From positions 62,001-126,000 of the forward strand of contig NZ_BJUZ01000002.1 of the NCBI RefSeq assembly GCF_007988885.1: a DNA stretch of 64,000 nt, in the 5' to 3' direction. The DNA comes from Gluconobacter wancherniae NBRC 103581 (GTDB lineage Bacteria; Pseudomonadota; Alphaproteobacteria; Acetobacterales; Acetobacteraceae). Both the position numbers and the translations under genes were made by a program. The notes beneath the pieces are model-generated. The model had not been told where the DNA came from. It saw only the letters and a list, made by a program, of their open reading frames with translations, and did no database searches. This document shows, piece by piece, positions 47,173 to 64,000 of the stretch; position 1 is the stretch's first letter; every line of letters starts with the position of its first letter.

Positions 47173-47565
47173 TCAATGGAGATCTTCGTCTGGTCTCTTG
47201 GGCGGATCAGGCGTGTCGGAAGGACTGTTTTTGTCCTTGCCTGGAGCCATGTCTTGCCGCTGGAGCACCAACTCTGGGTGCAGGGCTGCCAGCCGTAAGG
47301 CCAGTTCTTCGTCGGTTCGACCGTTCAGGACTCCTTTTAGAAGAAAGTCTGTAGAGACCCGGAGTCGGTTCGACAGAGCAGCAATAAGGAATACGCTTGG
47401 TGCGCGATCGCCACGCTCGATTTTGTTGAGCGTAGAGGCATCGACGCCGAGCAGCCGGGCGCATTCACTTTGGTTGGGGATAACAAGTTCCCGTGCCCAG
47501 GCGATGCGTGTTCCGATGGCTCGCTGGAGAGTGTTTAGGGTGTCCGGACGCTTATGTTTGGCCAT
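47173..47565 (-). CDS. Xre-family phage repressor
   Basis: 130 residues. N-terminal HTH (residues about 18-70) with NQSECARLLGVDASTLNKIERGDRAPS, followed by a short, charged C-terminus (PGKDKNSPSDTPDPPKRPDEDLH) without the LexA/CI peptidase domain, so inactivation by RecA-driven cleavage is not expected. It is the only leftward gene of the prophage and sits divergent from the early operon with paired palindromes between, the position of a CI-type repressor. Confidence 0.85.
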   Translation of the reverse strand: MAKHKRPDTLNTLQRAIGTRIAWARELVIPNQSECARLLGVDASTLNKIERGDRAPSVFLIAALSNRLRVSTDFLLKGVLNGRTDEELALRLAALHPELVLQRQDMAPGKDKNSPSDTPDPPKRPDEDLH

Positions 47566-49062: not shown

Positions 49063-49098
49063 CATTCCGTTTTTTGTGCGGATGAAAATGAGGACGGA

Positions 49099-49545
49099 AT
49101 GAGCGAGGGCAGATCGGAAAGTCGTAAAAGGCGTTCCGGACGTGTGAAGCAGCGTCAGGACAGATTTCTTGAGCATCTGGCCCTGAGCGGGAATGTTTCG
49201 GAATCGGCTCGTGTGGCGGAAATGCAGCGAGGTAGTCTGTATCGCTGGAAAGAGGAAGATGCTGCTTTTTCTGAGCGTTGGGATTATGCGCTTGAAGACG
49301 CAGCGGACGCTTTGGAAGCTGAAGCGCGGCGGCGCGCTGTGGCGGGGTATGACGAACCTATCACGTATGGTGGCAAGGTTATCTGCGATCCTGAGACTGG
49401 GGTTCCGTTGTTACGAAAGCGGTATAGCGATGGATTGATGGCGTTTTTGCTGCGTGCTCACCGGCCGTCTCGCTTCAGGGACGGAGAACGGGAGGCGCGT
49501 GGTGGTATTTCCATCAATATAAGTCGTGATGACAGCCAGCTTTAG
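49099..49545 (+). CDS. Terminase small subunit (probable)
   Basis: 148 residues. N-terminal HTH-like region (RQDRFLEHLALSGNVSESARVAEMQRGSLYRWKEEDAAFSERW) of the type found in TerS proteins that bind the packaging site, then an acidic helix (ALEDAADALEAEARRRAV) for oligomerisation. Directly precedes and overlaps the large subunit. Confidence 0.82.
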   Translation: MSEGRSESRKRRSGRVKQRQDRFLEHLALSGNVSESARVAEMQRGSLYRWKEEDAAFSERWDYALEDAADALEAEARRRAVAGYDEPITYGGKVICDPETGVPLLRKRYSDGLMAFLLRAHRPSRFRDGEREARGGISINISRDDSQL

Positions 49546-50842
49546 TCTCAATGCTGCTCAGCGCGATGCGGTGAGACTTCTTGGAAGTCCTGCACGGCAT
49601 ATTCTGCTGAGGGGAGGATCACGGTCGGGCAAGACGTTTGTTCTTGTTCGGGCAATTATTATTCGGGCCCTGAAGGAGCCGGGAAGCTGTCATGGGGTGT
49701 TTCGGCATCGTCTGACTGCTTTGAAGGCTTCAATCATCCGCGACACGTTCCCGAAGGTTATGCGGCTCTGTTTTCCGCAGGTGACCTGGAAGCTTGATCG
49801 GCAGGACTGGGTTGTCACGTTTTCCAACGGTTCGACAATTTTGTTTGGTGGTTTGGATGATGAACAACGGACCGAGAAAATTTTGGGTCTAGAGTTTGCG
49901 ACTGTTTATCTGAATGAAGCGAGCCAGATCAGTTATTCGTCGCGCAATATGCTTCTGACGCGTCTTGCGCAGAAATGCGGGTTGGCGGTGAAGGAGTATA
50001 TCGATGCAAACCCGCCGAGTGTGGGGCACTGGCTTTATGCGCTGTTCGAGGCAGGAATTGAGCCGAAATCTGGGGAGCCTGTTTCGGAGCGTATTTATTA
50101 CGCGACGATGATTCTTAATCCTGAAGCGAACAGGGATAATCTGAGTGAGGATTATCTTGCGCGGCTTGAAGCTCTGCCGGAGCGTGAGAGACGACGGTTT
50201 TTGTATGGTGAATACCAGTCTGTTGTGGACGGCGCGTTGTGGAGGCTTGAGTCTTTTCGTCGTGATGCTGTTGTTACGGCATTGACGCGTGACGATGTGG
50301 CTTCGCGGATGCGCCGGATCGTGGTGTCGGTTGATCCTTCTGGTGCGGCTGGTCCGGATGATTATCGCTCGGATGAAATTGGCATCGTGGTGTGTGGTGT
50401 TGATGCTGACGGCGTGGGGCATGTGCTGGAGGATCTCTCTGCGAGGGATAGTCCTGCGGGCTGGGCTGGGCGTGCGTTTCGCGCTTTTGACGAATGGGGT
50501 GCGGAGCGGATTGTTGCGGAGCGGAATTTTGGTGGCGCGCTTGTGGAAAGCACGCTGCGGAGTGTTCGTGCACAGGCGCCTGTCAGGCTGGTTACGGCTG
50601 CGCGTGGCAAAGCTGCGCGCGCTGAGCCGGTTGCGGCACTTTATGAGCTTGGCAGGGTTATTCATCATGGGCGCTTTACGGCGCTTGAGGATCAGCTCTG
50701 TCATTTTTCGGTCAGTGGGTATCGGGGCTCGCGCTCTCCGGATCGGGCGGATGCAATGGTCTGGGGCCTGAGTGATCTGATGCTGAACGGGACGGGCGGT
50801 GTGGCGTCCTGGAACTCGGCTGGATTTTCGTTCGCGCGCTGA
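49529..50842 (+). CDS. Terminase large subunit
   Basis: 437 residues from ATG 49529. ATPase domain with Walker A GGSRSGKT and Walker B ATVYLNEAS; C-terminal RNase-H-like nuclease with SVDPSGAAGPDDYRSDE, IVAERNFGGA and the Asp in SPDRADAMVWG. It cuts and pumps phage DNA. The start overlaps the small subunit by 17 bases. SPP1/P22-type length, so headful packaging is likely. Confidence 0.93.
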   Translation: MTASFSLNAAQRDAVRLLGSPARHILLRGGSRSGKTFVLVRAIIIRALKEPGSCHGVFRHRLTALKASIIRDTFPKVMRLCFPQVTWKLDRQDWVVTFSNGSTILFGGLDDEQRTEKILGLEFATVYLNEASQISYSSRNMLLTRLAQKCGLAVKEYIDANPPSVGHWLYALFEAGIEPKSGEPVSERIYYATMILNPEANRDNLSEDYLARLEALPERERRRFLYGEYQSVVDGALWRLESFRRDAVVTALTRDDVASRMRRIVVSVDPSGAAGPDDYRSDEIGIVVCGVDADGVGHVLEDLSARDSPAGWAGRAFRAFDEWGAERIVAERNFGGALVESTLRSVRAQAPVRLVTAARGKAARAEPVAALYELGRVIHHGRFTALEDQLCHFSVSGYRGSRSPDRADAMVWGLSDLMLNGTGGVASWNSAGFSFAR

Positions 50843-50889
50843 GGGCGTCCTGCCGGGGCGTGTGCGTTCTGTAGGAAATTGGAGAAATC

Positions 50890-52323
50890 ATGGACTGGAT
50901 GTCCCTGCAGCGGCGGTACGCAGTACCGGCCGGCGCTTCCGCGCGTACTGCCAGGATGCTTGCGCTGGGGCGTGTGTTGTCTGGAACGCAGTATGACGTA
51001 CTGCCGAATCCTTTTGCGATGGAGAGAACGGGTTCGGGGGAATATATTCCGCTTTCCAATCGGCGGCCCGCTGTGCGGACCAATCTCTGCCGAACGGTTG
51101 TGGATGAATCCGTGTCGCTGTTGTTTGGTGATACGCATTGGCCGACGCTTGTTGCTGAGGATTTGCGGGTTGCACATGCAATGCAGGCGTTTGCGTCTCA
51201 GACGCGGCTTGCGTCTTTGATGATGGAAGTGGCTCGACTGGGATCAGTTGGGTCTGTGGCGATTCTGTTTGAAGTGTCGGCGAGTGTGCCTCGGCTTTCC
51301 ATTCTTGAGACGGCATATCTGACGCCGTTCTGGGATGAGGCAAGTGGTGAGCTTTTGCGTGTGGAAGAGCGTTTTGTCGTTCTGGGACGTGAACTTGCGG
51401 CGCAGGGCTACCCGATTTCCGAAGATATGCTGGCTGCGCGTTTCTGGTGGGAGCGGGTCTGGACCAGCATGGATTGTGCCGTTTGCGTTCCCTGGCCTGT
51501 GGGCATGGAGGGTGGCCAGCGCGACGAGAGCCGGTCTGTCCGTCATGAACTGGGGTTTGTTCCTGTTGTGTGGATTCGGAATCTGGCGGGACCGCATGGG
51601 CTTGATCCGGATGGAGAGTGCACGTTTGAGCGGGCGATCGATACGGTTATTGAAGCGGATTATCTGCTGTCTCAGGCTGGGCGGGGTTTGAAATATGGAT
51701 CTGACCCGACGCTCGTATTGAAGACAGGTGGATTTTCTGACGGAGTAGCACATCAGGGTGGGGCCGCGTCTGCGTTGACGCTGCCACCGGAAGGCGATGC
51801 AAAGCTTCTTGAAATCAACGGCAATGCTGCGGCGGCAGTTCTGGAGCATTACCGGGAGCTTCGGCAGATTGTGCTGGAGCAGCTTCATGGAAACAGGGCG
51901 CACGGAGATCGGATTTCTGCGGCGCAATCTGGAAAGGCCATGGAGATGATGTGTCAGCCATTGATCTGGCTGGCGGACCGTTTACGCCATTCTTATGGCG
52001 CTGGCGGATTATTGCCGATTTATCGGATGGCGTGCCGGTTTTCGCAGGTTTTGGAGAACGGACTTCGGCTTAACGGGCAGTTGGTGCGTGATCTGCCGTG
52101 TTGTCGGTTGGATCTGCGCTGGCCAGCCTGGTTCCCGCCGACTGATGGCGAATTGCTCTCGCTTGCGCAGGGGCTGGTGACAGCGGTTTCCAACGGTTTG
52201 GTTAGTCGTGAGACGGCTGTTCGGATTTATGCGTCAGCTTCAGGAAGTCCGGACCCGGAAGCCGAATGGCGTGCGGTTGCGGGGTGGGACGAAGACGATG
52301 TGGAACGATTTCGAAAGGTATGA
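50890..52323 (+). CDS. Portal protein (SPP1-gp6-like)
   Basis: 477 residues. Features of SPP1-like portals: NRRPAVRTNLCRTVVDESVSLLFG, EADYLLSQAGRGLKYGSDPTLVLKTGG, SGKAMEMM and a C-terminal RLDLRWPAWFPPTDGELLSLAQGL helix. Dodecameric channel for DNA in and out of the head. Located between terminase and scaffold as usual. Confidence 0.88.
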   Translation: MDWMSLQRRYAVPAGASARTARMLALGRVLSGTQYDVLPNPFAMERTGSGEYIPLSNRRPAVRTNLCRTVVDESVSLLFGDTHWPTLVAEDLRVAHAMQAFASQTRLASLMMEVARLGSVGSVAILFEVSASVPRLSILETAYLTPFWDEASGELLRVEERFVVLGRELAAQGYPISEDMLAARFWWERVWTSMDCAVCVPWPVGMEGGQRDESRSVRHELGFVPVVWIRNLAGPHGLDPDGECTFERAIDTVIEADYLLSQAGRGLKYGSDPTLVLKTGGFSDGVAHQGGAASALTLPPEGDAKLLEINGNAAAAVLEHYRELRQIVLEQLHGNRAHGDRISAAQSGKAMEMMCQPLIWLADRLRHSYGAGGLLPIYRMACRFSQVLENGLRLNGQLVRDLPCCRLDLRWPAWFPPTDGELLSLAQGLVTAVSNGLVSRETAVRIYASASGSPDPEAEWRAVAGWDEDDVERFRKV

Positions 52324-52820
52324 AAATGTCCGAAACGGGCGAGGAAGTTCAGGACGCTGACGCTCTTCGGCAGGCGCTGAAGGAGGCGCGGGCCGAAGTC
52401 GAGACAGTGAGGCGCGAAATGGCGGGAGCTTCTGCAAAGCAGGAGAAGCTGCTTCGCACTCATGAGGAAGCGTTGGATCGTGTTCGGCAGGCCGGTGACC
52501 GTGAGGTTATTGCTGCAGAGCTTCGTGCTGAGGCTATTCGGTATGGTGCACATAATCCGGAGGATGTGGTCCGGCTGATTGATGCGTCTGATGTGGTGCG
52601 CGATGCGGATGGTCGTGTGCAAGGCGTTGCGGAAGCTGTGGAGCGTGCACGCAAGGATCGGGCTTATCTTTTCGGCGAAATGAGCCGCGCCGGAGTGGCC
52701 ACGGGCACAACGGCAGGGCGCTCCGCGCCTCGTCCGGGTGGTGGTGAACCGTTTGATGCGCGTCGTGCAAACGGGGCGGATTACGAAGCGCGCAAATGGC
52801 AGTTTCTCGCACAGGGCTGA
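52320..52820 (+). CDS. Capsid scaffold protein (probable)
   Basis: About 166 residues; start ATG 52320 overlaps the portal stop (ATGA), while ATG 52326 is an alternative. Highly charged, coiled-coil N-terminal half (DALRQALKEARAEVETVRREM...), then RAEAIRYGAHNPEDVVRLIDASDVVRDADGR, a pattern seen in scaffold proteins of this morphogenesis module. Directs head assembly and is removed later. Confidence 0.8.
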   Translation: MKMSETGEEVQDADALRQALKEARAEVETVRREMAGASAKQEKLLRTHEEALDRVRQAGDREVIAAELRAEAIRYGAHNPEDVVRLIDASDVVRDADGRVQGVAEAVERARKDRAYLFGEMSRAGVATGTTAGRSAPRPGGGEPFDARRANGADYEARKWQFLAQG

Positions 52821-52845
52821 GGCCGATGCTGCGAGACGAAGATGG

Positions 52846-52885
52846 TTCATCCAGATGGATGAATTCCGAAAATATATTTACGGAA
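52846..52885 (+). repeat. Tandem hairpins ahead of the capsid gene
   Basis: TTCATCC-AGAT-GGATGAA (52846-52863) immediately followed by TTCCG...CGGAA (52864-52868 with 52881-52885, AT-rich loop). They end 8 bases before the major capsid ATG, so they might affect its mRNA stability or translation. No T-run, so not a terminator. Confidence 0.5.
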
Positions 52886-52893
52886 CGAAATGA

Positions 52894-54273
52894 ATGAGCA
52901 TTGATAATTTTCCGGTTCAGCTTCAGGCCGCCATCCAGCAGGGTTTTCTTGCCCGTGAATTTGAAAATGGCCTGAAATCGCGCCTGGGCTTTCGTCAGGT
53001 TGCAGATCGGGAGGTGTTTCCGAATGCTATTGGTGAAACGCTTACCAAAACTCGCAAGAGTCTCAAGGCGCCTGTAACGACGCCAATGAACCCTACGACG
53101 AACACGAATTTTGACAATGGCATGTCTCCGAGTGGTTGGTCTGTTGAGCAGTATACGCTTTCTATCAATCAGTATGGCGACACGATTGATCTGAATATGG
53201 TGACGTCTGGTGTTGGTATCGCGTCCCAGTTTCTGGCGAATGCCAACACGAATGGTATTCAGGCCATGCAGTCTCTGGACCGACTGGCGCGCAACACGCT
53301 TTTTGGGGGTGCCCAGAATGGTGTTGGCGGTTACCTGGGTGGCAATACGCGGATTACGGTTGCTCTGGGCGCTGCGGGCGACACTATCTCTGTAGATGAT
53401 ATCCGTGGTTTTCAGAAGGTTATTGTGAACGGTCAGGTGGCGCCGGTCAGTTCTCTTAATGGGATGACGGTCACTGTGGGCTCTGATGCTTACACGCTGG
53501 TGACTGTGTCAGTGGACGGAACAAATGTGTCCACTGCCCCAGGTGGTATTTCGGGCTCTTTGCAGTTCTCGTCCAGTGTTTCTGTGTCAGATGGTGCAGC
53601 TGGGAATGCTGTTGTTGCGGCGACGGCTCCGATGGTGATTCGTCCTAATGGCCGTCTGACGACTGCGGCTCTTCAGACCGCGAGTGTCAACGGTTTGGCG
53701 GATACTCTGGGGATTCAGCAGGTTCTGGCGGGTGTTGCGACGCTTCGCCGCAATAACGTGCCGATGATTAACGGTGCATATCATTGTTATCTGGATGATT
53801 TGCAGTTGCTTTCATTGTTCCGGGATCCGGATTTTAAGCATCTTTATCGTGGTGCATATGGATCGGAAGAGTATCGTTCCGGACAGGTCATTGAATTGCT
53901 TGGTGTGCGTTTCATCCCGACCACGGAGGCTCCTCAGCAGGTTTCTCTGGGGGCGGGCTCAATTCATCGCGCGCTGCTGCTGGGGCAGGGGGCTATTATT
54001 GAGGGTGATTGCGCGCTGACAGGTCATTCGGATATTCCTGATGCCGAGCGTGCGCTTATCGAAATGGTGGATGGCGTGGCCATGGTGACGCGCGAGCCAC
54101 TGGATCGTTTGCGTCAGATTATCGCGCAGTCCTGGTATTGGATTGGTGGTTTTGCGCTTCCGACAGATGTTACGGCGGACACAAACGTTATTCCTACGGC
54201 GACCAACAGTTATCTGAAGCGTGGTGTCGTGATCGAAAGCCTTGGGACGGATGCTCTGGGGCTTACGTTCTGA
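52894..54273 (+). CDS. Major capsid protein (HK97 fold, with insertion)
   Basis: 459 residues. N-arm and core motifs fit the HK97 fold: FENGLKSRLGFRQVADREVFPNAIGETLTKTRKSL, QSLDRLARNTLFGGAQ, LRRNNVPMINGAYHCYLDD, RDPDFKHLYRGAYGSE and a C-terminal REPLDRLRQIIAQSWYWIGG. Between about residues 165 and 255 there is a Ser/Val/Thr-rich insertion (beta-sandwich-like) that could be an outward decoration. Placed directly after scaffold. Confidence 0.88.
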   Translation: MSIDNFPVQLQAAIQQGFLAREFENGLKSRLGFRQVADREVFPNAIGETLTKTRKSLKAPVTTPMNPTTNTNFDNGMSPSGWSVEQYTLSINQYGDTIDLNMVTSGVGIASQFLANANTNGIQAMQSLDRLARNTLFGGAQNGVGGYLGGNTRITVALGAAGDTISVDDIRGFQKVIVNGQVAPVSSLNGMTVTVGSDAYTLVTVSVDGTNVSTAPGGISGSLQFSSSVSVSDGAAGNAVVAATAPMVIRPNGRLTTAALQTASVNGLADTLGIQQVLAGVATLRRNNVPMINGAYHCYLDDLQLLSLFRDPDFKHLYRGAYGSEEYRSGQVIELLGVRFIPTTEAPQQVSLGAGSIHRALLLGQGAIIEGDCALTGHSDIPDAERALIEMVDGVAMVTREPLDRLRQIIAQSWYWIGGFALPTDVTADTNVIPTATNSYLKRGVVIESLGTDALGLTF

Positions 54274-54332
54274 AGTCTCTGCGGGCTTTTGTGGGGGAAC
54301 CTGCAGAGGCCTGTTTTCGGGGAGGAAGAATT

Positions 54333-54734: not shown

Positions 54735-54743
54735 GGAGATATC

Positions 54744-55343
54744 ATGAACCAGGCAGCTATCAACGCGTGCGTTTGGCGTGCTTATGCCAAGGCGGCGGCT
54801 GTTCTTGGTGTTTCGGGTGAGCAGTATCGGCCGGTGGATGCATTGGCACCTATGGCGCAGCAGCATGCCCAGCCGATATTGTCATTTGACGTCAGTTCGG
54901 GTTTTTCGTTTTCCAAGCCATTAACGTGGGGGACGGCAACGGAGTATGTTCTGACAGATCTTGGTTCTGATACTGCTGTTGGCGATATTCTGGTGTGTCA
55001 GGGGCGCACTTATTTTGTTGTTTCGGCTGAACCCATGCGTCCCCCGGCCTGTATTTTGTGCAATCACAGGGTGACGGTTAGCGGTGTGACTGGGACGCAG
55101 GGAGATGTTGTTGAGGGTTGTCCTGCATCGATCCTGATGAAGGCAAAAGGTGAGAGCTCGGGTAGTGGAGTGCCGGGGGCATCACGGCCAGGGCAGTTCA
55201 TGCTGTATCTCCCCTTGCTCCCCGGAGTTGTTCTTTCACCTTACATGACTGTGACGACAGATTTGGGGACGACTTATACTTTGAATGCCGTAGAGCATTC
55301 TGGGTTTGGGGTGCGTTGTACGATGTCCATGCAGCAGGTCTGA
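54744..55343 (+). CDS. Head-tail joining or tail-completion protein, uncertain
   Basis: 199 residues, starting MNQAAINACVWRAYAKAAAVLG, with YRPVDALAPMAQQHAQPIL and a Gly/Ser loop (GESSGSGVPGASRPG). No signal peptide. No family recognised; location suggests neck/tail connection. Confidence 0.55.
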   Translation: MNQAAINACVWRAYAKAAAVLGVSGEQYRPVDALAPMAQQHAQPILSFDVSSGFSFSKPLTWGTATEYVLTDLGSDTAVGDILVCQGRTYFVVSAEPMRPPACILCNHRVTVSGVTGTQGDVVEGCPASILMKAKGESSGSGVPGASRPGQFMLYLPLLPGVVLSPYMTVTTDLGTTYTLNAVEHSGFGVRCTMSMQQV

Positions 55344-55355
55344 CGAGGAGAATAC

Positions 55356-56330
55356 ATGGCTGACGCGTCGAGTGTTGGGCAGGCGTTGGCGTATGTCTGT
55401 GCTGGAATTATTTATCCGAATGGGCTGAATGCGGCTTCATTGACGGGGCGGCAGACAGTAGTTCGGCGAGGGTGGCTGTTGCCGAGTGATTTGTTCACTG
55501 CGCAGAATATCAGAAATGGAATTGATTTCGTAACGGTTACGCTTTCGTCACATGACAGTCGTGTATGTACTGAGCCTCTCGGCCGACCATGGAGAACGGG
55601 TGAGCAGATTGGCGCGACTGTATCTGTTGGTGTGGAGGGCGATGGCGTTCGTGTTGTATTGCCGTCTGGTATTGCAGCGACGGGTGTTATTGGAATTTGG
55701 AATAGTGCAGTTGGGATTTCGTCATGTGTAGCTTATGCCGCACGTCAGGACGATAATGCGTCCAAAATTGCAGCAGGTCTGGCAGATGTTTTTCCAGGGG
55801 CGGTTGTCGACGGGTCTTTGATCCGTGTTCCAGGTATTCAGCTTAATGGACGTGTGGTTGGTTATGGCCAATCATACCGGATTACGCGACGTCAGGGGCA
55901 GCGTTACAGGGTGTCGATCTGGACGGCTGATGCGACCGTTCGAGAAGCTCTGGGTGGGCAACTGGATGCGGCGCTTGCGGAGTTGAGCTGGCTTGCGACG
56001 CCTGATGGGGGGCAGGCACAGATCATGTTTTGTGGGGTCGAAGACGTCGATACCATGCAGAATCAGGCGCTGTATCGGCGTGATTATCTTTATGAGTTGA
56101 TTTTTGACGCGATCCAAACGCAGTGGTCGCCCGGAATGCTGTCGGGTGGCGGCGAAATTCAGGGAGCAGGCTGGGTGTCGGGTTTTGGGACGAGTGAAGC
56201 CAGTATCGCGCAGCAGTCAGCAACGGAAGCGCTGGAAGCAATGGCGGCAGCGGTGTCGGCTCGACAGGGTGCACAAGCTTACCCTGGACTGAGCGTTGAT
56301 CGTTTTGGAACCGTTATTTCGACAGTTTGA
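55356..56330 (+). CDS. Tail completion protein, uncertain
   Basis: 324 residues. Segments NGIDFVTVTLSSHDSRVCTEPLGRPWRTGEQIG, RITRRQGQRYRVSIWTADATVREALGGQLDAALAELSWLATPDGGQAQIMF and a low-complexity Ala-rich C-terminus. Regions like VREALGGQLDAAL suit a tail-terminator or neck protein, but I do not recognise the family. Followed by a terminator-like hairpin inside the late operon. Confidence 0.5.
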   Translation: MADASSVGQALAYVCAGIIYPNGLNAASLTGRQTVVRRGWLLPSDLFTAQNIRNGIDFVTVTLSSHDSRVCTEPLGRPWRTGEQIGATVSVGVEGDGVRVVLPSGIAATGVIGIWNSAVGISSCVAYAARQDDNASKIAAGLADVFPGAVVDGSLIRVPGIQLNGRVVGYGQSYRITRRQGQRYRVSIWTADATVREALGGQLDAALAELSWLATPDGGQAQIMFCGVEDVDTMQNQALYRRDYLYELIFDAIQTQWSPGMLSGGGEIQGAGWVSGFGTSEASIAQQSATEALEAMAAAVSARQGAQAYPGLSVDRFGTVISTV

Positions 56331-56374
56331 GAATAGTTGAACGTTTCAGCAATTATAAAGAATTTTTTGAAGAA

Positions 56375-56409
56375 AGGCGGCTTGATCCAACAGGATCGGC
56401 TGCCTTTTT
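56375..56409 (+). terminator. Intrinsic-terminator-like hairpin inside the late operon
   Basis: AAAGGCGGC-TT-GATCC / GGATC-G-GCTGCCTTT, an interrupted stem (one G/T pair and a small bulge) with loop AACA, followed by T-run (56404-56409). It lies between the tail-completion gene and the sheath gene. Not expected to be strong enough to end a processive, antiterminated transcript. Confidence 0.65.
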
Positions 56410-56431
56410 CATTTTGGAGAAATGTTGGGGA

Positions 56432-57916
56432 ATGTCTCTGATTTATCAAGCGGGTACGCTGAATACGACGGCACTTACCGTTCCTAATCTTTATGTGCAG
56501 ATCGCCCAGCCGCAGTCTCTGACGCTTGCCGGGAGCTCATCTTCCATCATGGGTATTGTCGGTACTGCTGGTTGGGGGCCGGTGGGAATGCCAATGCCGG
56601 TTGGTAGTGTCGGCGAATATATGTCGTATTTTGGTGCCAAGCAGGACAATGCAACAGATGCAGGTTTGGCAGTAAATATTGCTGCCATGCAGGGAGCATC
56701 GTCTTTTATCGTTGTTCGGGTGACTGATGGTACGGATGTAGCGGCATCTGCTGTTCTGGATGGAGTGACACTCACCGCGGCTCATACTGGAACTGCTGGA
56801 AACGCTCTTACTGTTACGGTTTCGCCTATTGGCTCGGGCTTTGCGCTGGCAGTTTCACACGCGGTGCTGGGCGTCAGCACATATACTGGCGCTGACTGGA
56901 GCACGATTGCCAAGACAGTATCCTCTGATGCTGCTGCATTGGTGAAAATTGTGCTTCCATCAGAAGTTCCGGCGATCGCTGCGGGTTCCGTGACTTTGAG
57001 TGCTGGAACGGATGGTTCTGTCCCAGGGACGCAGGCGTTTATTGGTCAGGATGGTGAAGCCCGGACAGGTATGTATGCTCTGCGTGGACAGGGATGTTCG
57101 GTTGCGACGCTTCATGGACTGACAGATAGTATTTCTTTTGCGTCACAAGCTGCTTTTGGATCTAGCGAAGGGATTTACATGATCCTTTCCGGCCCTGCAG
57201 GTGAGCAGCTTAGCGCTGCAGTGGCTACAAAGAGCGGTATCGGGCTTGATTCTACCGCCGCGAAACTGATGTTTGGTGACTGGCTGTGGTGGAGTGATGA
57301 TACCAACGGCATCATGCTGGTAAGCCCGCAGGCGTTTGCTGCAGGTATTTTGGTGGCACTTTCCCCTGAACAGTCCAGCCTCAACAAGCAACTCTCTGGT
57401 GTGGTGGGAAGTCAGAAAGCCGGGCTTGGAAGTAGTACCGCGGCGTATTCGACAGCAGATCTATCTACGCTGTTTACTGCGGGCATCGATGTTATCTGCA
57501 ATCCTGCGCCAGGGGGAGCTTACTGGGCGGTGCGTTGTGGTCATAACACGTCGTCTCGTTCGGTCGTGAATGGTGACAATTATACGCGACTGACCAATTA
57601 TATTGCTGCCTCTCTTGCGGGGGGCATGGGGACGTATGTGGGCAGTGTTATCAACGACACCTTGTTTGGTGATATCCGTGCGACATTGCTTGGTTTTCTG
57701 TCTTCGTTGCTCTCTCAGGGAATTCTGGGAGTTGTAAACGGCGTCTTGCCGTATAGCGTTGTCTGTGATTCTAGCAATAATTCACAGGCTCGGATTGCCC
57801 TTGGATATGTTCAGGCTGATATTGCGGTCCAGTATCAGGGGATCAATGAAAAATTCATTGTGAATCTGCAAGGGGGTACTTCTGTCAGCGTGTCTACTGC
57901 TCTGGGGAGTGTGTGA
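56432..57916 (+). CDS. Contractile tail sheath protein
   Basis: 494 residues from ATG 56432. Sheath features: SIMGIVGTAGWGPVGMPMPVGSVGEYMSYFG near the N-terminus, a variable middle region (Gly/Thr/Ser-rich), and C-terminal LTNYIAASLAGGMGTYVGSVIN...LGYVQADIAVQYQGINEKFIVNLQGGTSV, the conserved sheath tail. Its presence shows the phage has a contractile tail (myovirus). ORF upstream extension to 56327 is rejected: no ribosome site. Confidence 0.92.
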   Translation: MSLIYQAGTLNTTALTVPNLYVQIAQPQSLTLAGSSSSIMGIVGTAGWGPVGMPMPVGSVGEYMSYFGAKQDNATDAGLAVNIAAMQGASSFIVVRVTDGTDVAASAVLDGVTLTAAHTGTAGNALTVTVSPIGSGFALAVSHAVLGVSTYTGADWSTIAKTVSSDAAALVKIVLPSEVPAIAAGSVTLSAGTDGSVPGTQAFIGQDGEARTGMYALRGQGCSVATLHGLTDSISFASQAAFGSSEGIYMILSGPAGEQLSAAVATKSGIGLDSTAAKLMFGDWLWWSDDTNGIMLVSPQAFAAGILVALSPEQSSLNKQLSGVVGSQKAGLGSSTAAYSTADLSTLFTAGIDVICNPAPGGAYWAVRCGHNTSSRSVVNGDNYTRLTNYIAASLAGGMGTYVGSVINDTLFGDIRATLLGFLSSLLSQGILGVVNGVLPYSVVCDSSNNSQARIALGYVQADIAVQYQGINEKFIVNLQGGTSVSVSTALGSV

Positions 57917-57918
57917 TT

Positions 57919-58344
57919 ATGGCAAATCCGTATAGCATTGGGCGCGATTGCCGGATTACGGTTCTTTGGAACGGTAGTCGAATTGATCTGCGTGATGTGA
58001 CGTCTTTCTCCGCCGCTCAGGAGACCCAGGCTTTAAGAGCCAGTCCGTTAAATGGTGTGCCTGTTGAATTTAATATGCCCAATGGCTGGCGCGGTACTTT
58101 TCAGATTGCACGCGCAAATGCTGCATTGGATAATTTGATTGCGTCTGTTGAGGCGGCGTACTGGAATGCAGGAACTGTTGGAAGTGGCACTATCTATCAA
58201 TATGTGCGCGAGCCGGATGGTACGACGAGTACCTGGGAATATACTAATGTTTCCATGCAGTTGAAGACTGACCCTTGGCAGTCTGACCATATGATTCATC
58301 AGAATGTTGTTTTCTTCGCGTCTACAAGGACCAGAATCTCGTGA
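57919..58344 (+). CDS. Tail tube protein
   Basis: 141 residues from ATG 57919 (a GTG at 57913 overlapping the sheath stop is an alternative). Short beta-rich protein starting ANPYSIGRDCRITVLWNG, with FNMPNGWRGTFQIARANAALDNL, typical of small tube proteins of Mu-like/P2-like myoviruses. Forms the inner tube inside the sheath. Confidence 0.85.
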   Translation: MANPYSIGRDCRITVLWNGSRIDLRDVTSFSAAQETQALRASPLNGVPVEFNMPNGWRGTFQIARANAALDNLIASVEAAYWNAGTVGSGTIYQYVREPDGTTSTWEYTNVSMQLKTDPWQSDHMIHQNVVFFASTRTRIS

Positions 58345-58658
58345 GCGCATTTCCTGATGAAATCATGACGTCCGATGGTCATAAGCTTGCTTTGAGGGAG
58401 ATTGACCCCGCTGACATGCTGGATTTGATCGAAGCTGCGGGATCAGCTGTCAATGGCGCTTCAGCCAGCGCCTGGCTTGGGTATGCTGAGATGATCTGTT
58501 CTGTTTGTGCGATTGATAATGTTCCTGTGCAGATGCCCGTGACTAAAGAAGAGATCCGCGAACTTGGCCGACGGATTGGAAACAAGGGTATTCTAGCGCT
58601 CCAGCCGATTTTTGATGTTGATTCTGATGAAGGCGTGGTGGACACGGCAAAAAACTGA
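58341..58658 (+). CDS. Tail assembly chaperone, short form (G)
   Basis: 105 residues from a GTG start overlapping the tube stop (GTGA). Acidic and helical (LREIDPADMLDLIEAAG, TKEEIRELGRRIGNKG), the usual character of tail assembly chaperones that bind the tape measure. Ends GVVDTAKN-stop directly on the slippery sequence at 58649-58655. Confidence 0.8.
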   Translation: MSAFPDEIMTSDGHKLALREIDPADMLDLIEAAGSAVNGASASAWLGYAEMICSVCAIDNVPVQMPVTKEEIRELGRRIGNKGILALQPIFDVDSDEGVVDTAKN

Positions 58659-58831
58659 GCAGGCACTCTGTTTTTCAGGAGATATTATATCTTCTGGATC
58701 ATGGGGTGCCATGGGAAGTTCTCAGGAAATGGTCGAAGGCTCGACGCATGGCAGCTTGCGTTATTACAGGCGAGCGAGACGGGCATGTTTTTGACTGGAA
58801 TGCCAGACGATATCGGGATGCCCTGCCTTGA
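58341..58831 (+). CDS. Tail assembly chaperone, frameshifted long form (GT)
   Basis: A -1 slip on A AAA AAC (58649-58655) moves into a frame that stays open to 58831 and adds about 58 residues: it starts LSRHSVFQEILYLL, then has DHGVPWEVLRKW and ends RRYRDALP. The sum is about 163 residues. The second frame shows coding character (mixed residues, no stops), as in the G/GT pairs of many phages. It is not a separate gene with its own start. Confidence 0.82.
58649..58655 (+). other. Programmed -1 ribosomal frameshift site
   Basis: A AAA AAC in frame GCA-AAA-AAC, followed at once by the zero-frame stop TGA. A downstream hairpin CAGGAGATA-TTA-TATCTTCTG (58676-58696) could stimulate slippage, though it is 20 bases away, more than the usual 5-9. 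Matches the classical X XXY YYZ rule. Confidence 0.85.
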
Positions 58832-59757
58832 TTCAAAATATAGCGAAGCACTCGTTTATTATGCTTGCGAGAAAAACGAGGCGGTCTTTTTTTCGTAAAA
58901 ATACCAAAAACTCAGGTGTTTTTGTTCCGAGGAAAAAAAAACGTTCAAGCGCTTTAGGTCCGGTTTCTATTTTTGATGAACAGGAGCAAGTGGAAAGGGT
59001 TCGCGGACGTAAAATTTTGTTTTCCAGAAAGGTGAAAAAATTTATTCCTGCGAGGTATGTAGAGCCAAGTGATCGTAAGATGCGCTTAGTCCCTTTTTTT
59101 CAGAAGCAGACTACTATTCCGGTATCTAATTCGGGGGGGGGGCATAAGACACAGAGTGCTGAGGAAAATTCATCCAATTTTTCTAAACATCAAAATTTCC
59201 GAAATAAGACGCCCCTGCTTCGGAAAATAAAAAATGATACTTCATGGCGAAATTCGCACATTTCATCTTCGTTTGCTGTGAAGGAAAATCAAAAAGAGAA
59301 TACGATAAGAAAATCCTTTATGCCCACTCATCAGAAAGGGCTTGGTTTTTCGTTTCCTAGTGTTGGCGCTTGTTTTTTTAAAAAGGCATCTTTTGTTCGA
59401 GTGGATAAGATGAGTCGAAAAAGCTTTTTATCCAGCCATAAAAAATATTCTGATAAAGGCATTGGGCTCGAAAAAAAGAAACAAGGCTTTAATGTTGTAC
59501 CGCCTTTAAATTGTCACTCGGCTAATAATCAAGTGTATCAGGCTGATCATACGTCAAGTTTGCGAAAAGCGACGCAAGCCCAAGAAAGTGTGCATGAATC
59601 ATTGGTTCGGGCATCGCCTCCGGCTTACATGCAAGGGAAATTGGGAGATGTTTTAGCGAGCACCAAAGAAAGTAGGTTACGGGCGCGACGAGTTTCAGGG
59701 GCCTTCGATGAGATCGCACACATGCAATATCCTGGCCGGAGCGTCGGGGCTGGTTGA
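58828..59757 (+). CDS. Short basic protein in the tape-measure position
   Basis: 309 residues if started at TTG 58828, overlapping the long chaperone stop (TTGA); ATG 58861 would give 298. About 61 Lys/Arg against 21 Asp/Glu, many Ser and Asn, no membrane segment and few heptads. Tape-measure proteins usually have 600-2000 residues, coiled coils and hydrophobic stretches; this one has none. It contains A9 (58933-58941) and G10 (59133-59142) runs. GC is lower than its neighbours. Function unknown: a very short tape, an internal virion DNA-binding protein, or a decayed gene. Confidence 0.5.
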   Translation: MIQNIAKHSFIMLARKTRRSFFRKNTKNSGVFVPRKKKRSSALGPVSIFDEQEQVERVRGRKILFSRKVKKFIPARYVEPSDRKMRLVPFFQKQTTIPVSNSGGGHKTQSAEENSSNFSKHQNFRNKTPLLRKIKNDTSWRNSHISSSFAVKENQKENTIRKSFMPTHQKGLGFSFPSVGACFFKKASFVRVDKMSRKSFLSSHKKYSDKGIGLEKKKQGFNVVPPLNCHSANNQVYQADHTSSLRKATQAQESVHESLVRASPPAYMQGKLGDVLASTKESRLRARRVSGAFDEIAHMQYPGRSVGAG

Positions 59758-59771
59758 AGGAGGCTTTGTTT

Positions 59772-60662
59772 GTGGCAACCGGGCTGCTTGACATTGAAAA
59801 TGCCATAGGGGCGATTGGGCATAGTGCTTCTTCTTCTCCTGTTACTCTTGGAAGTCTGGTTCTGACGGGGATAGAGGTTCCTGATCGGCTGCAGGTTGGT
59901 GGGCGGCAAATGCTTGTTGTTCATAGACTTCCTGGAGGTGGAAAAATTATTGATGCCTTGGGCAATGATCCGGGGAGACTGGAACTTCGAGGACGTTTTT
60001 TTGGCCCGGATGCTCAGTCCCGTGCACAGGAAATAGAGCGGCTGCGTATCTCGGGTGAGCAGGTTTCATTTTCTGCTGCAGGACTTTCTCTTCAAGTTTG
60101 GATTGTACAGTTCGTGTACACTTATGAAGCGAAAGGTGCTCTTTGCAGTTATATTCTTACGCTTGAGCGTCCGGCAGAAGGTGAACAAAATGGGGAAAGC
60201 ACGACCTCTCTTTCGGAGTTTTTGGGTGAAGACACGTCTTCTGCTTTGCAAGGATTGAGCGACACAGTTTCTGAGCTATCAACAGGAATTTTTACCGCTG
60301 CAGGGCAGGTTGGAACAATTATTGGGCAGGTTACGCCGCTTGCTACGATGATAGGAGCGGGCAGCGCATTTGCGGGGGTTTCAAATGCTCTTGAGGTGGT
60401 TAATGGTGTGGCGCAGAGTGGAAGTAATTTAGCAAATACTCCTTCTGCATTATCAGGAATTTCTAACAGTCTTGGAATTGCTAAGGCTGGTTTGAATTCT
60501 ATTATTGATCAGTGTTCTTTGAATGTTGATAATATTAACATAACCAATTCTCAGAGCTTTCTCGCTGTTTCTGGGAACGCTGCATTATTGAGTGCCGCAG
60601 TAGATTCTGAAGGTCTGGTTGGGCGAACTCAGGCTGTGCTTGAGGGAGCGAAAAGCATTTAA
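59772..60662 (+). CDS. DNA-circularisation / U-like tail protein
   Basis: 296 residues from GTG 59772, which has a full AAGGAGG 8 bases upstream; TTG 59754 is possible. N-terminal half shows VDRLQVGGRQ-like and LELRGRFFGPDAQSRAQEIERLRISGEQVSFS, as in the Mu-type N-terminal circularisation/tail-tip proteins. The C-terminal half is Gly/Ala/Ser-rich and weakly hydrophobic (GQVGTIIGQVTPLATMIGAGSAFAG), a feature of tape-measure ends. It follows the tape-measure position as usual. Confidence 0.7.
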   Translation: MATGLLDIENAIGAIGHSASSSPVTLGSLVLTGIEVPDRLQVGGRQMLVVHRLPGGGKIIDALGNDPGRLELRGRFFGPDAQSRAQEIERLRISGEQVSFSAAGLSLQVWIVQFVYTYEAKGALCSYILTLERPAEGEQNGESTTSLSEFLGEDTSSALQGLSDTVSELSTGIFTAAGQVGTIIGQVTPLATMIGAGSAFAGVSNALEVVNGVAQSGSNLANTPSALSGISNSLGIAKAGLNSIIDQCSLNVDNINITNSQSFLAVSGNAALLSAAVDSEGLVGRTQAVLEGAKSI

Positions 60663-60687
60663 AAAGCTATTTTTTAATGGGGGGGAG

Positions 60688-60894
60688 ATGCAGGAGATAT
60701 GGATAACTGCAGCCGATGTGTCTCTGTATCATGTCGCTGCACGCTATTTGGGGGATGCTTGTCAGTGGTGGCGAATAGCGGAATTGAATGATCTTGCTGA
60801 CCCTGAACTAGGCTGGATCGGGATGCCGATTAAAATTTCTTTACCCTCAGCGCAGCCATCTGGCTCCATCGGAATTCCTGTGGAGGGCGAGTAA
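60688..60894 (+). CDS. LysM-like tail protein X
   Basis: 68 residues from ATG 60688 with GGGGGGAG upstream. Sequence DVSLYHVAARYLGDACQWWRIAELNDLADPELGWIGMPIKISLP resembles the small LysM-type gpX baseplate protein that joins the tube to the hub. Its stop shares a base with the hub start. Confidence 0.75.
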   Translation: MQEIWITAADVSLYHVAARYLGDACQWWRIAELNDLADPELGWIGMPIKISLPSAQPSGSIGIPVEGE

Positions 60895-61970
60895 TGTCTG
60901 TCAGACGGCCGGAAATTCGTGCTCTGGTGGCTGGGAATGTTATTTCTGGATTTTACGTTAAAAATTTTGAGGTGAATTCCAGCCGTTACGAAGCATGCGA
61001 CGTTGCATCTGTTGTGTTTGCCATTGACACTACAAAAATCGATAATTCTGGCACTCTCTGGTTTGAGCAGGATACAACTGAGAATATCAGTTTTGTGCTT
61101 GAAATGCGTGATGCAGTCGTCGCAGCTTCCGAATGGGAGCGCTTTTTTGATGGTCAGGTTGATCATGTTCAGTATTTTCCTGACAAGGGGTTGCTGGAAA
61201 TTGAATGCCGGGATGCATTGGCTTTTTTAATGGATCTTAGAGTTCAAGATTCATGGATCAATCATACGGGTGAGGAGTTATTGCGGGTTTTGATAGAGGC
61301 GGCGGGTTTGACTGCTCAGATTGATTTTCCCCCTGAATCTGCTTCGATTATGACAGGTCAGTTCTGGCAAATTGAACATAAAAGGCTTTCGCTTCTTTCC
61401 CACCATCGGTTTCAAACCGCCGCAGATGTGGCTTTTATGATCTCCAGGGATGCCGGGTGTGATCTTTATGCAGATGGAAAGACAATCGTCTGTAGCCCAG
61501 TGCTTTCATCCGATGGAAATCAGGCAATTGTTCATGATGTTCGAGGTACTGTGCTTTCTCGATCTTTTGGACGAGACTTGCAGGCGGATAGAGGTTTTGT
61601 CGTGCATGTTGCGTCTTGGGATAGTCGTCAACGCAGTGCGACTGAAATCTATTACGATGGAAATTCATTTTCTTCTACTGGACCACAAGACCAACGTTCG
61701 GTTCATGGGTTTCGTTTGCCAGGTAGACGCCTTGAAGACCTCAAAAGATTTGCAGTGGGAAAATACGCCCGTATCGCCGCGCATGTGCGGTCCGGGTATG
61801 TGAGATTACCGGGGCGATCGGAGTTAAGGCCACGAGATTTCTTGCGGCTTGGGGATGGTTACTGGGAAAATCCTCTTGCGATTGATCAAGTAATCTCTCG
61901 ATTTTCGCTAGAGGAAGGTTTTTTGCAGGAATTGGTTCTGCGAAATAGGGGGGAGGTGCCTGTAGCATGA
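60894..61970 (+). CDS. Baseplate hub protein (gpD / gp27-like)
   Basis: 358 residues. Begins SVRRPEIRALVAGNVISGFYVKNFEVNSSRYEACD, with WERFFDGQVDHVQYFPDKGLLEIECRDALAFLMDL and a C-terminal RLPGRSELRPRDFLRLGDGYWENPLAIDQV, typical of late-control gene D-type hub proteins. Central tail-tip component. Starts on the previous stop (TAATG). Confidence 0.83.
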   Translation: MSVRRPEIRALVAGNVISGFYVKNFEVNSSRYEACDVASVVFAIDTTKIDNSGTLWFEQDTTENISFVLEMRDAVVAASEWERFFDGQVDHVQYFPDKGLLEIECRDALAFLMDLRVQDSWINHTGEELLRVLIEAAGLTAQIDFPPESASIMTGQFWQIEHKRLSLLSHHRFQTAADVAFMISRDAGCDLYADGKTIVCSPVLSSDGNQAIVHDVRGTVLSRSFGRDLQADRGFVVHVASWDSRQRSATEIYYDGNSFSSTGPQDQRSVHGFRLPGRRLEDLKRFAVGKYARIAAHVRSGYVRLPGRSELRPRDFLRLGDGYWENPLAIDQVISRFSLEEGFLQELVLRNRGEVPVA

Positions 61971-62587
61971 ATGATGTTGGTTTTGATGTAGCGTCATTTA
62001 CAAACAGAACTGCACATTCCCTATTTGGTATAGTGTCGGCTGTTGATCCTGTGAATCACGCTGTAAAAGTCCGCATTCAGCCAGATAATCTTGAAACGGG
62101 TTGGATTCCTGATGCGTGCGGTGTGCAGGCGGGGAGTTTACGTGTCTCACACCCTTCATCAGTCGGAACACATGTGGTTTTGCAGCCTGTGGAAGGTGAT
62201 GGGGAGCATTTTGTCGTCACTGGAATCGTGTTTGACACAGTGGTGAAACCGCCTGTGTCTCCTATAACTGGAGTAGTTGCTCAGGCAGGTGAAATGCTGG
62301 TTATGGCCGGTTGTGGAGCTCCTCCATTAGACGGACGGTTGGCGGGTGCACCGACAGATGGTGGCGGTTGGTGGCATATTACGTCGCAGGGTTTTTTTGG
62401 CGGTGCGGGAAATGCGGGCTTTAGCATTGGAAATGATCTGATTCGTCTTTTTTCTGGCGATGTCTCTCTGGAGTTAGGGGCTGGTGGGCTTAAGGTATCT
62501 GGGGGGGACGTAAAAACGGATCTTCATTCTCTGAATGAACATTTTCATCTTGTTGGATCACAGAAAACGGAGGGTCCTACAGGATGA
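61967..62587 (+). CDS. Baseplate spike protein V
   Basis: 206 residues. OB-fold region FGIVSAVDPVNHAVKVRIQPDNLETGWIP followed by Gly-rich beta-helix-type repeats (GGGWWHITSQGFFGGAGNAGFSIGNDL, LELGAGGLKVSGGDVKT) ending in HLVGSQKTEGPTG. This fits the gpV-type membrane-piercing spike. Overlaps hub by 4 bases. Confidence 0.84.
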   Translation: MNDVGFDVASFTNRTAHSLFGIVSAVDPVNHAVKVRIQPDNLETGWIPDACGVQAGSLRVSHPSSVGTHVVLQPVEGDGEHFVVTGIVFDTVVKPPVSPITGVVAQAGEMLVMAGCGAPPLDGRLAGAPTDGGGWWHITSQGFFGGAGNAGFSIGNDLIRLFSGDVSLELGAGGLKVSGGDVKTDLHSLNEHFHLVGSQKTEGPTG

Positions 62588-62943
62588 AAAGCATCTCGCA
62601 TGTGATGGGGGAAGATTTTCCTCTTTTATCGGGAAGCTTAGTTTTGATTGATGGAGCCGAAAAAACGCGACAAAGGTTGCTGCGTCGTCTTCTGACGATA
62701 TCTGGCGATTATATTTGGCAGAATGATTACGGTGCGGGTTTGCCAGCTATGGTTGGGCAAACAATATCCACTGGTGTCATCCAGGAAATAATTACAGCTC
62801 AGGTTCGCCAGGATATTGGAGTCGATGCTGCCCAGCCAGTAACTGTTGCGGTTGTACCTGAAAATTCTGGCGTTTGCACATGCACGATTTCGTATGTCGA
62901 TGCGGAAAGTGGGATGCGGTCGAGTTTGAATTTCTCTTCTTGA
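62584..62943 (+). CDS. Baseplate wedge protein W (gp25-like)
   Basis: 119 residues. LLRRLLTISGDYIWQNDYGAGLPAMVGQT and QVRQDIGVDAA match the gp25/gpW lysozyme-like wedge family of baseplates. Overlaps the spike stop by 4 bases. Confidence 0.82.
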   Translation: MKSISHVMGEDFPLLSGSLVLIDGAEKTRQRLLRRLLTISGDYIWQNDYGAGLPAMVGQTISTGVIQEIITAQVRQDIGVDAAQPVTVAVVPENSGVCTCTISYVDAESGMRSSLNFSS

Positions 62944-62985
62944 TAACAGGACCTGCGCTATCAAGCGCGTTGCCGGGGTAATACG

Positions 62986-64000
62986 ATGTCTCTCTCTCTT
63001 CGGTCGTTCGCAACGACGGTTTCAACAGCCGTTGCGACGGCACAGGCTTCTTGTACCCAATTGGTTGATATGTCCGTCGGTTCTCCCGGTCGTGCGCTGA
63101 TGGAAGCCGTAAGCGGCACTGGTCTGTGGTTGCAGTATCTTGTTTTGCAAACATTGTTGCGGACACGCCTTTCGACGTCCACAGGCGTGGATTGCGATAG
63201 TTTCGTCAATGATTTCGGGATGACGCGGCTTCAGGGAAGTCCGGCCAGTGGGTTTGTAACGATGAGTTCGCTCTCGCCAGATGGACAGTCTGCCGTTATT
63301 CCACCTGGTGCTGTGGTCCGTACAGTATCAGGTGTTTCATTCTCAGTAGTAGAGGATGCCAGCCTGTCATACTGGTCTGTGACTGATGATGGATATGTAA
63401 GGCTTTCGGGTACAAAATCTATTTCGGTACCAGTATCAGCGAATGTTAGCGGAAGTACAGGAAATGTTGCGTCAGGTGCGATTTGCCTGATGGGGACGAG
63501 TATTTCTGGTATTGATACGGTTACGAATGAAAATGTTTTCAGTAATGGTTCTGATCAGGAAAGCGATGCACAGTTGCGTGCGCGATTTCCGTTATGGTTA
63601 GCGGCTAAGGCTACCGCCAGTTCGGCGGCTATCGGGAGTGCAATTTCTGGTGTCCAGTCTAATCTTAGCCAGTCATTGAGAAATGGGCAGGCTGCAGATG
63701 GCTCTACAAGATCAGGGTATTTTACTGCCGTAATAAATGATGGAAGTGGTGCACCTTCGGCTTCGCTTTTGTCAGAAGTCTATAGTGCTATAGATAGTGT
63801 TCGTGCTCTTGGAGTGGGTTTTTGTGTCCAGGCCCCCTCCGTGCTTGTCATGAACGTTTCCATGACTGTGACTGTTCCTGCTGCTACGGACATAGATGCC
63901 GCGGCGCTCTCCATTCAGCGCGCTATTTCCAGTGATATAGAAGCTGCGACGGTTGGAGGTGGGTACGCCTATAGTCGGCTTTCATATCTGGCTTATGTCG
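62986..64000 (+). CDS. Baseplate J-like protein, partial
   Basis: ATG 62986 with GGGGTAAT upstream; no stop before the window ends, so at least 338 residues. N-terminus MSLSLRSFATTVSTAV, then ESDAQLRARFPLW, QAADGSTRSGYFTAVINDGSG and AALSIQRAISSDIEA, as in the Mu gp47 / gpJ baseplate wedge. Closes the canonical V-W-J order. Confidence 0.85.
   Translation, partial: MSLSLRSFATTVSTAVATAQASCTQLVDMSVGSPGRALMEAVSGTGLWLQYLVLQTLLRTRLSTSTGVDCDSFVNDFGMTRLQGSPASGFVTMSSLSPDGQSAVIPPGAVVRTVSGVSFSVVEDASLSYWSVTDDGYVRLSGTKSISVPVSANVSGSTGNVASGAICLMGTSISGIDTVTNENVFSNGSDQESDAQLRARFPLWLAAKATASSAAIGSAISGVQSNLSQSLRNGQAADGSTRSGYFTAVINDGSGAPSASLLSEVYSAIDSVRALGVGFCVQAPSVLVMNVSMTVTVPAATDIDAAALSIQRAISSDIEAATVGGGYAYSRLSYLAYV

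What the first reader, a model, noticed from the sequence alone, without database searches (positions are those of the whole stretch)
58341..58831. Programmed -1 frameshift in the tail chaperone gene
The short frame ends AKN-stop on the perfect slippery heptamer A AAA AAC. The -1 frame continues open for 58 more codons with clear coding character and ends where the next gene starts. G/GT frameshifts are well known in phage tails, but this heptamer and downstream extension are visible only by reading the second frame and would be missed by an ordinary gene caller.
Basis: partly seen in the sequence, partly recalled or inferred. Interest (0 to 1): 0.72.

Follow-up and report, generated by a model that had tools for sequence, protein, structure and literature searches.

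The report
Frameshift signal in phage-tail assembly gene
A phage-tail assembly gene in this acetic acid bacterium very probably makes a second, longer protein by letting ribosomes slip back one base, a known trick in phages, and here it is kept together with an RNA hairpin in an inherited phage-derived gene cluster that many related bacteria carry.

Summary
Observation confirmed, reading supported. G (58341-58658) ends GCA-AAA-AAC-TGA; heptamer A_AAA_AAC at 58649-58655; the -1 frame (T) runs 58 codons to 58831. All 91 distinct relatives examined keep a slippery heptamer there: 59 AAAAAAC, 30 GGGAAAC, one AAAAAAT, one AAAAAAA; so do 80 of 80 kept viral contigs, some of them the same elements. 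Lys and Gly swap, the slip motif stays: -1 ribosomal frameshifting of the lambda G/GT kind. T evolves as protein only in the -1 frame.

New here: a conserved 9-bp stem 6 nt after the heptamer (58662-58670, 58702-58710); codon choice is biased inside it and normal one base outside.

The carrier is the larger surprise: a structural-only contractile-tail cluster of about 20 kb, sharing host neighbours with the window in 10 of 10 genomes tested (7 genera), its tree largely tracking the host's. Probably domesticated and gene-transfer-agent-like. A 2025 paper saw phage-like stretches in Acetobacteraceae genomes; I found none calling this a gene transfer agent. Frameshift: new member of a known kind. 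No product is shown experimentally.

The parts
58341..58658 (+). G: zero-frame tail assembly chaperone ORF, 105 aa, GTG start, ends AKN-stop
   Evidence: lies between tube-position and tape-measure-position genes; phrog_20383 (unknown function) matched by 55 of 55 homologues
58649..58655 (+). slippery heptamer A_AAA_AAC (P site AAA, A site AAC)
   Evidence: a slippery heptamer in 91 of 91 distinct relatives
58656..58658 (+). zero-frame stop TGA directly after the heptamer
   Evidence: abutting in 88 of 91, 18 nt further on in 3
58655..58831 (+). T: -1 frame extension, 58 codons + stop (LSRHSVFQEI...RDALP)
   Evidence: 54-68 aa in relatives; dN/dS 0.52 against 1.78 and 2.74 in the other two frames
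58662..58670 (+). 5' arm of conserved stem, starts 6 nt after the heptamer
58702..58710 (+). 3' arm of conserved stem; the loop carries a nested hairpin in this genome (58656-58735 folds at -32 kcal/mol, z -4.07)
57913..58344 (+). tail tube by position (after the sheath); phrog_12993, function unknown
56327..57916 (+). tail sheath (phrog_23)
58828..59757 (+). tape-measure-position gene: short, very basic (K+R 19%), ends ...PGRSVGAG, like the end of the phiKX1 protein at that position
   Evidence: no family match
49099..50842 (+). small and large terminase subunits of the element
50890..54273 (+). portal, scaffold and major head protein of the element
59754..64000 (+). hub-, LysM-, gpD-, gpV-, gpW- and gpJ-like tail and baseplate genes; the element runs on to extended coordinate 67474 (L021 3474), beyond the window
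   Evidence: hub and gpD names are by position and weak matches
47173..47565 (-). HTH_3 regulator beside the element; a like gene is among the printed flank ORFs of 7 of 10 other genomes

Best explanation
This is a programmed -1 ribosomal frameshift of the lambda G/GT kind. Most ribosomes stop after AAA-AAC and make G (105 aa). A minority, held by the stem 6 nt downstream, slip back one base with both tRNAs on A_AAA_AAC (re-pairing on AAA AAA) and go on in the -1 frame, making GT (163 aa, joint ...TAKN-LSRHS..., or TAKK-LSR if the slip comes before the A-site tRNA is set). G and GT would coat the tape measure, and T would recruit the tail tube. Shown here: heptamer, reading frames, conservation, selection on T in the -1 frame, and the stem with its codon bias. 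Inferred: the slip itself, its rate, the stem's stimulatory role and the chaperone function.
For: Heptamer and frames. 91 of 91 distinct loci keep a heptamer in register: 59 A_AAA_AAC and 27 G_GGA_AAC abutting the stop, 3 G_GGA_AAC with the stop 18 nt on, 1 A_AAA_AAT, 1 A_AAA_AAA; 80 of 80 kept IMG/VR contigs, 65 distinct, partly the same elements as in the genomes. The encoded residue changes (Lys or Gly) while the slip motif stays. T: dN/dS 0.52 in the -1 frame (28 independent pairs), 1.78 and 2.74 in the other frames; 89 of 89 and 64 of 89 loci have stops in those frames. Stem: 87 of 91 loci form 8-9 of 9 pairs at one fixed offset; 95.3% of cells paired against 37.9-51.2% when slid. Inside the stem Gly is GGG in 81 of 90 against 261 of 949 elsewhere in G and T, Val GTG in 88 of 88 against 499 of 1023, His CAC in 86 of 89 against 35 of 82; the Pro third base just outside is at background (CCG 48 of 88 against 326 of 594, odds ratio 0.99). 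Gene position after sheath and tube-position genes. [quoted passage not shown]
Against: No peptide, reporter or ribosome-profiling data. The window's G matches no Pfam family; phrog_508 (tail assembly chaperone) is reached by only 2 of 55 homologues, best E 0.0013. The viral fold library's only strong match is an unnamed phage protein (E 1.5e-6); named chaperones come at E 0.037-0.12, but baseplate hub proteins come at like values (0.07-0.09); no significant PDB match. Covariation in the stem is modest: pairs with a change on both sides reach the observed value in 31 of 500 shuffles, and partners slid by -2 give more double changes (10 cells) than the stem itself (7). L102 keeps a heptamer but not the stem; 7 of 80 viral contigs have only 4 of 9 pairs. 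In L057 T leaves the family sequence after about 17 codons, at a one-base gap. The counts treat related sequences as independent. The review says A_AAA_AAC is much less shifty than A_AAA_AAG in E. coli, so a low rate is expected.
Confidence: 0.93

Rival explanations
1. T is translated on its own from an internal start, and the heptamer is incidental.
For: phiKX1's T part was annotated as a separate CDS from an internal ATG. 67 of 89 loci have some ATG, GTG or TTG in T codons 1-16.
Against: No start position is kept throughout: the commonest is in 34 of 89. The well conserved start of T (LSRHP) lies before these starts. It does not explain why a slip heptamer is kept in 91 of 91.
Confidence: 0.03
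2. Polymerase slippage on the A run makes mixed mRNAs, rather than ribosomes slipping.
For: Six A in a row in the window and in 58 other loci of the 91 with AAAAAAC.
Against: 30 of 91 relatives have GGGAAAC, with no run longer than three, and keep the same T and, in most, the same stem.
Confidence: 0.02
3. The -1 frame is a decayed remnant; the cluster is a dead prophage.
For: No integrase, replication or lysis family was recognised in the cluster; its tape-measure-position gene is short and odd; the G389 and G325 copies look altered.
Against: Purifying selection on T in the -1 frame and a kept heptamer and stem across genera; 24 of 26 genomes of the genus have a G match without inner stops.
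Confidence: 0.02

Closest known systems
Lambda G/GT and the conserved -1 frameshift of phage tail assembly genes (Xu, Hendrix and Duda 2004; seen only as a reference and through passages of PMC5009743 and PMC10885494)
   Same: Short ORF after the major tail gene and before the tape measure; heptamer near its end; -1 extension; a fusion product predicted.
   Different: No shared sequence family established; here a contractile tail, a heptamer abutting the stop in most copies, and a conserved stem 6 nt downstream. That lambda lacks an obvious stem is recalled, not looked up.
Haloviral g-t shift sites HCTV-1 (G_GGA_AAC) and HCTV-2 (A_AAA_AAC) (PMC5009743, passage)
   Same: The same two heptamers at the same kind of gene.
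   Different: Viruses of halophilic archaea; relation by sequence not tested.
Komagataeibacter phage phiKX1 (LC644975.1; Omata et al. 2021, PMC8566455, parts 1-2 of 6 read)
   Same: Homologous structural genes in the same order, same heptamer and stem.
   Different: A 53 kb mitomycin-induced phage genome (rated incomplete by PHAST in that paper) with a 742-aa protein at the tape-measure position; the window's cluster is structural only, with 309 aa there. The frameshift is not annotated in the record and the word does not occur in the paper.
Gene transfer agents (RcGTA, BaGTA; PMC9662315, passages)
   Same: Endogenised structural cluster of phage descent, no integrase or replication gene recognised, tree largely tracks the host.
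   Different: Contractile-tail genes; another host family; no particle, random packaging or gene transfer shown.
Phage-like contigs of the Sphagnum virome that align to Acetobacteraceae genomes (PMC12142844, passages)
   Same: Continuous phage-like stretches in genomes of this family, with flanking metabolic genes and baseplate motifs; the authors suggest temperate phage or defective prophage and name gene transfer agents among things cryptic phages can become.
   Different: Whether they are this element was not checked by sequence; the passages seen mention no frameshift and no synteny across genera.

Membership tests
[quoted passage not shown]
G/GT -1 frameshift tail assembly chaperone | -1 ORF continues and is under protein-level selection | tested here: met
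G/GT -1 frameshift tail assembly chaperone | gene lies between major tail (tube) gene and tape measure | tested here: met
   sheath, then tube-position gene upstream; tape-measure-position gene with a C-end like phiKX1's downstream; tube and tape measure are named by position, not by a family match
G/GT -1 frameshift tail assembly chaperone | sequence membership in a named chaperone family | tested here: inconclusive
   phrog_508 for 2 of 55 members, best E 0.0013; phrog_20383 (unknown) 55 of 55; no fitting Pfam or NCBIfam family
G/GT -1 frameshift tail assembly chaperone | chaperone-like fold | tested here: inconclusive
   model pLDDT 87; named chaperones at E 0.037-0.12 beside baseplate hub proteins at like values; PDB nothing significant
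G/GT -1 frameshift tail assembly chaperone | fusion protein made, in a set ratio to G | not testable with these tools
   needs protein data
Gene transfer agent (six features of PMC9662315) | proteins of caudoviricete descent forming virion-like particles | tested here: inconclusive
   descent by family matches; particles not testable
Gene transfer agent (six features of PMC9662315) | genome endogenised in the host genome | tested here: met
   chromosomal; host genes shared with the window's flanks in 10 of 10 genomes, on both sides in 6
Gene transfer agent (six features of PMC9662315) | mostly vertical inheritance, co-diversification with the host | tested here: met
   6 of 7 well-supported forks of one host-gene (ParE) tree recovered, 1 conflict; 10 of 17 splits shared (20 genomes), 5 of 11 (14 genomes); patristic r 0.92 and 0.77, Mantel p 0.0001
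Gene transfer agent (six features of PMC9662315) | packages mostly random host DNA | not testable with these tools
Gene transfer agent (six features of PMC9662315) | head too small to package its own genes | not testable with these tools
Gene transfer agent (six features of PMC9662315) | packaged DNA delivered to other cells | not testable with these tools

The most novel reading that the evidence does not exclude
Acetic acid bacteria and many relatives in their family carry a domesticated contractile-tail phage cluster, a gene transfer agent or similar particle of independent origin. It has been inherited vertically across genera, and the G/GT frameshift with its stem is kept because particles are still built. 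The tape measure has shrunk to a short, strongly basic protein, which predicts a short tail.
Probability: 0.5. Interest if true: 0.8.

Novelty: new member of a known kind. Interest (0 to 1): 0.5.

Why it matters
It gives a clean, deeply sampled frameshift cassette (two interchangeable heptamers, fixed 6-nt spacer, conserved stem) in one bacterial family, useful for measuring how tail-protein ratios are set. Because the cassette is kept in an inherited structural cluster, it is also indirect evidence that the cluster still makes tailed particles in acetic acid bacteria, which makes a gene-transfer-agent hypothesis directly testable in industrial strains.

Tried and rejected

Papers: PMC8566455 parts 1 and 2 of 6 plus a word search; PMC2241609 passages and section 12; PMC5009743, PMC10885494, PMC3711429, PMC9662315 and PMC12142844 passages only; all others as search listings. 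'None found calling it a gene transfer agent' rests on searches of an open-licence library, of which most papers were seen only as listings.

Full report
Observation. The window lies in a 2.78 Mb genome whose nearest named relatives are Gluconobacter species. An ORF at 58341-58658 ends GCA AAA AAC TGA; the heptamer AAAAAAC is at 58649-58655; the -1 frame is open from 58655 to a stop at 58829-58831, 58 residues. The next ORF starts at 58828, overlapping the stop. In 104 kb only 3 of 533 ORFs of 60 aa or more end in a canonical heptamer abutting the stop; an open -1 frame of 45 codons past a stop is common (242 of 533) and proves nothing alone.

Comparison. A protein search found G in 24 of 26 genomes of the genus and in 153 of 397 genomes of the family, 49 of 102 genera. 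I examined 91 distinct loci, not all of the matches: those supplied by the searches plus regions chosen to spread over genera. 91 of 91 carry a heptamer in the right frame: 59 AAAAAAC, 30 GGGAAAC, one AAAAAAT and one AAAAAAA; the zero-frame stop abuts it in 88 and lies 18 nt further on in 3. The wider listing of 120 rows, with duplicates and the window itself, agrees. In IMG/VR the best 80 of 380 relatives were kept, and 80 of 80 have it: 39 AAAAAAC and 41 GGGAAAC, 6 of the latter with the later stop; 65 are distinct. These contigs are not independent of the genomes: L188 is 99% identical to the window's G. Lys and Gly are exchanged at the P-site codon while the slip motif stays, so the motif and not the residue is under selection. 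GGGAAAC also argues against polymerase slippage as the shared mechanism.

T is a real protein segment. Pooled over 28 independent close pairs, dN/dS is 0.52 in the -1 frame (0.47 without the stem codons, 25 pairs), and 1.78 and 2.74 when the same DNA is read in the other frames (43 pairs each). All 89 loci tested have a stop in one other frame and 64 in the other, within 49 codons. L057 and L102 were left out of these counts. In L057 T leaves the family sequence after about 17 codons, at a one-base gap; it is one locus, and an assembly error is possible.

Downstream stem. Nine pairs join the bases at offsets 6-14 and 46-54 after the heptamer (58662-58670 and 58702-58710). In 87 of 91 loci 8 or 9 pairs form at that offset; in shuffles even the best of 28 offsets reaches 8 or 9 in only 285 of 1820. 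The window segment 58656-58735 folds at -32 kcal/mol, z -4.07, with 0 of 200 shuffles as good. On 64 of the 91 sequences (those not over 90% alike) RNAalifold predicts 8 of these pairs and nothing else; 95.3% of cells pair against 37.9-51.2% for slid partners. Covariation is modest: 7 double-change cells against 1.3 in shuffles (0 of 500 reach it), but for pairs with a change on both sides 31 of 500 shuffles reach the value, and partners slid by -2 show 10 double-change cells. The strongest evidence is codon choice: within the stem Gly is GGG in 81 of 90, Val GTG in 88 of 88 and His CAC in 86 of 89, against 261 of 949, 499 of 1023 and 35 of 82 elsewhere in G and T, while the Pro third base one position outside the stem matches background (48 of 88 against 326 of 594 CCG) (related sequences counted as independent). 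L102 (AAAAAAT) lacks the stem, and 7 of 80 viral contigs have 4 of 9 pairs. Rfam has no match. 3' stem loops are known stimulators of bacterial -1 frameshifting (PMC5009743, passages); that this one stimulates is inferred.

What G is. It lies after sheath and tube-position genes and before a gene that ends ...YPGRSVGAG. The 742-aa protein at the tape-measure position of phage phiKX1 ends ...LPGRAIGR, and the G084 and G321 copies end ...PGRSIGR and ...PGRSIGA; I take the gene as the tape measure by position and this short motif only. It is 309 aa, K+R 19%, without a strongly hydrophobic stretch; counterparts in the sister clusters are also rich in K and R (0.14-0.23). G is matched to phrog_20383, unknown function, for 55 of 55 homologues and to phrog_508, tail assembly chaperone, for 2. 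The AlphaFold model is good (pLDDT 87). The viral library's one strong match is an unnamed phage protein (E 1.5e-6); named tail assembly chaperones follow at E 0.037 to 0.12, among baseplate hub proteins at like values; the PDB gives nothing significant. The chaperone role therefore rests on position and the frameshift itself.

The element. From about 47675 to extended coordinate 67474 the genes are small leading genes, terminase, portal, scaffold, head, connectors, sheath, tube, G/T, tape measure, and baseplate to fibres. No integrase, replication or lysis family was recognised, apart from a weak match of the LysM protein to an endolysin family (phrog_380, E 0.0031), which I read as the shared LysM part; several genes match nothing. 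In the 20 genome regions compared, the genes matched are in the same order; 13 of the 20, 6 of them in the same genus, have the compact cluster with both terminase subunits and the fib1 fibre gene. Of 10 genomes from 7 genera (the window's own included) tested for flanks, 10 share host genes with the window on at least one side and 6 on both. A tree of six element proteins recovers 6 of 7 well-supported forks of a one-gene (ParE) host tree; one (placing G047) conflicts; 10 of 17 splits are shared; patristic r is 0.77 on 14 genomes and 0.92 on 20, Mantel p 0.0001. Free relatives exist: G007's second copy has an integrase within the region and extra genes. The G084 copy has what look by eye like lysis genes but no integrase near it among the listed matches. 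IMG/VR holds roughly 20-22 kb contigs that look like this element. In 2007 four phage proteins of Gluconobacter oxydans were listed among Acetobacteraceae signature proteins (PMC2241609 Table 7B); that they belong to this cluster is likely but was not checked by sequence. In 2025 phage-like contigs from peat moss were found to align to continuous regions of Acetobacteraceae genomes, and defective prophage was suggested, with gene transfer agents named among the systems such phages can become (PMC12142844); whether that is this element was not checked. I found no paper that describes it as a gene transfer agent (searches; mostly listings).

Verdict. The frameshift reading is right, and is a new member of a known kind with a newly seen stem. 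Of six published features of gene transfer agents, two are met here, one is met in part (phage descent shown, particles not) and three could not be tested, so the element is called gene-transfer-agent-like, not a gene transfer agent.

Noticed in passing
window 47675-64000, on to extended coordinate 67474 (L021 1-3474): Structural-only contractile-tail cluster at a chromosomal site shared across genera; gene-transfer-agent-like.
   Followed up: partly
window 58828-59757: Tape-measure-position protein is short, strongly basic and fast evolving; its C-terminal PG.S.G motif is what most copies share.
   Followed up: partly
L019 15001-15542 (phiKX1): Deposited annotation splits G and T into two hypothetical proteins and misses the frameshift.
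   Followed up: yes
window 47173-47565 (-), 47675-47980, 47902-48492, 48556-49062: HTH regulator and three small genes of unknown function lead the cluster; candidates for its control.
   Followed up: no
L057 (G325): T leaves the family sequence after about 17 codons at a one-base gap although the heptamer is kept; sequencing error or decay.
   Followed up: no
L182 (G389): Cluster copy with AAAAAAT, no stem (seen in L102) and no matched baseplate genes after the hub within 20 kb; possibly decaying.
   Followed up: partly
L109, L186, L187 (G007 C4): Second G/T copy in a prophage-like region with an integrase.
   Followed up: partly
L189-L196 and others: IMG/VR lists roughly 20-22 kb stretches that look like this element as virus contigs.
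   Followed up: no
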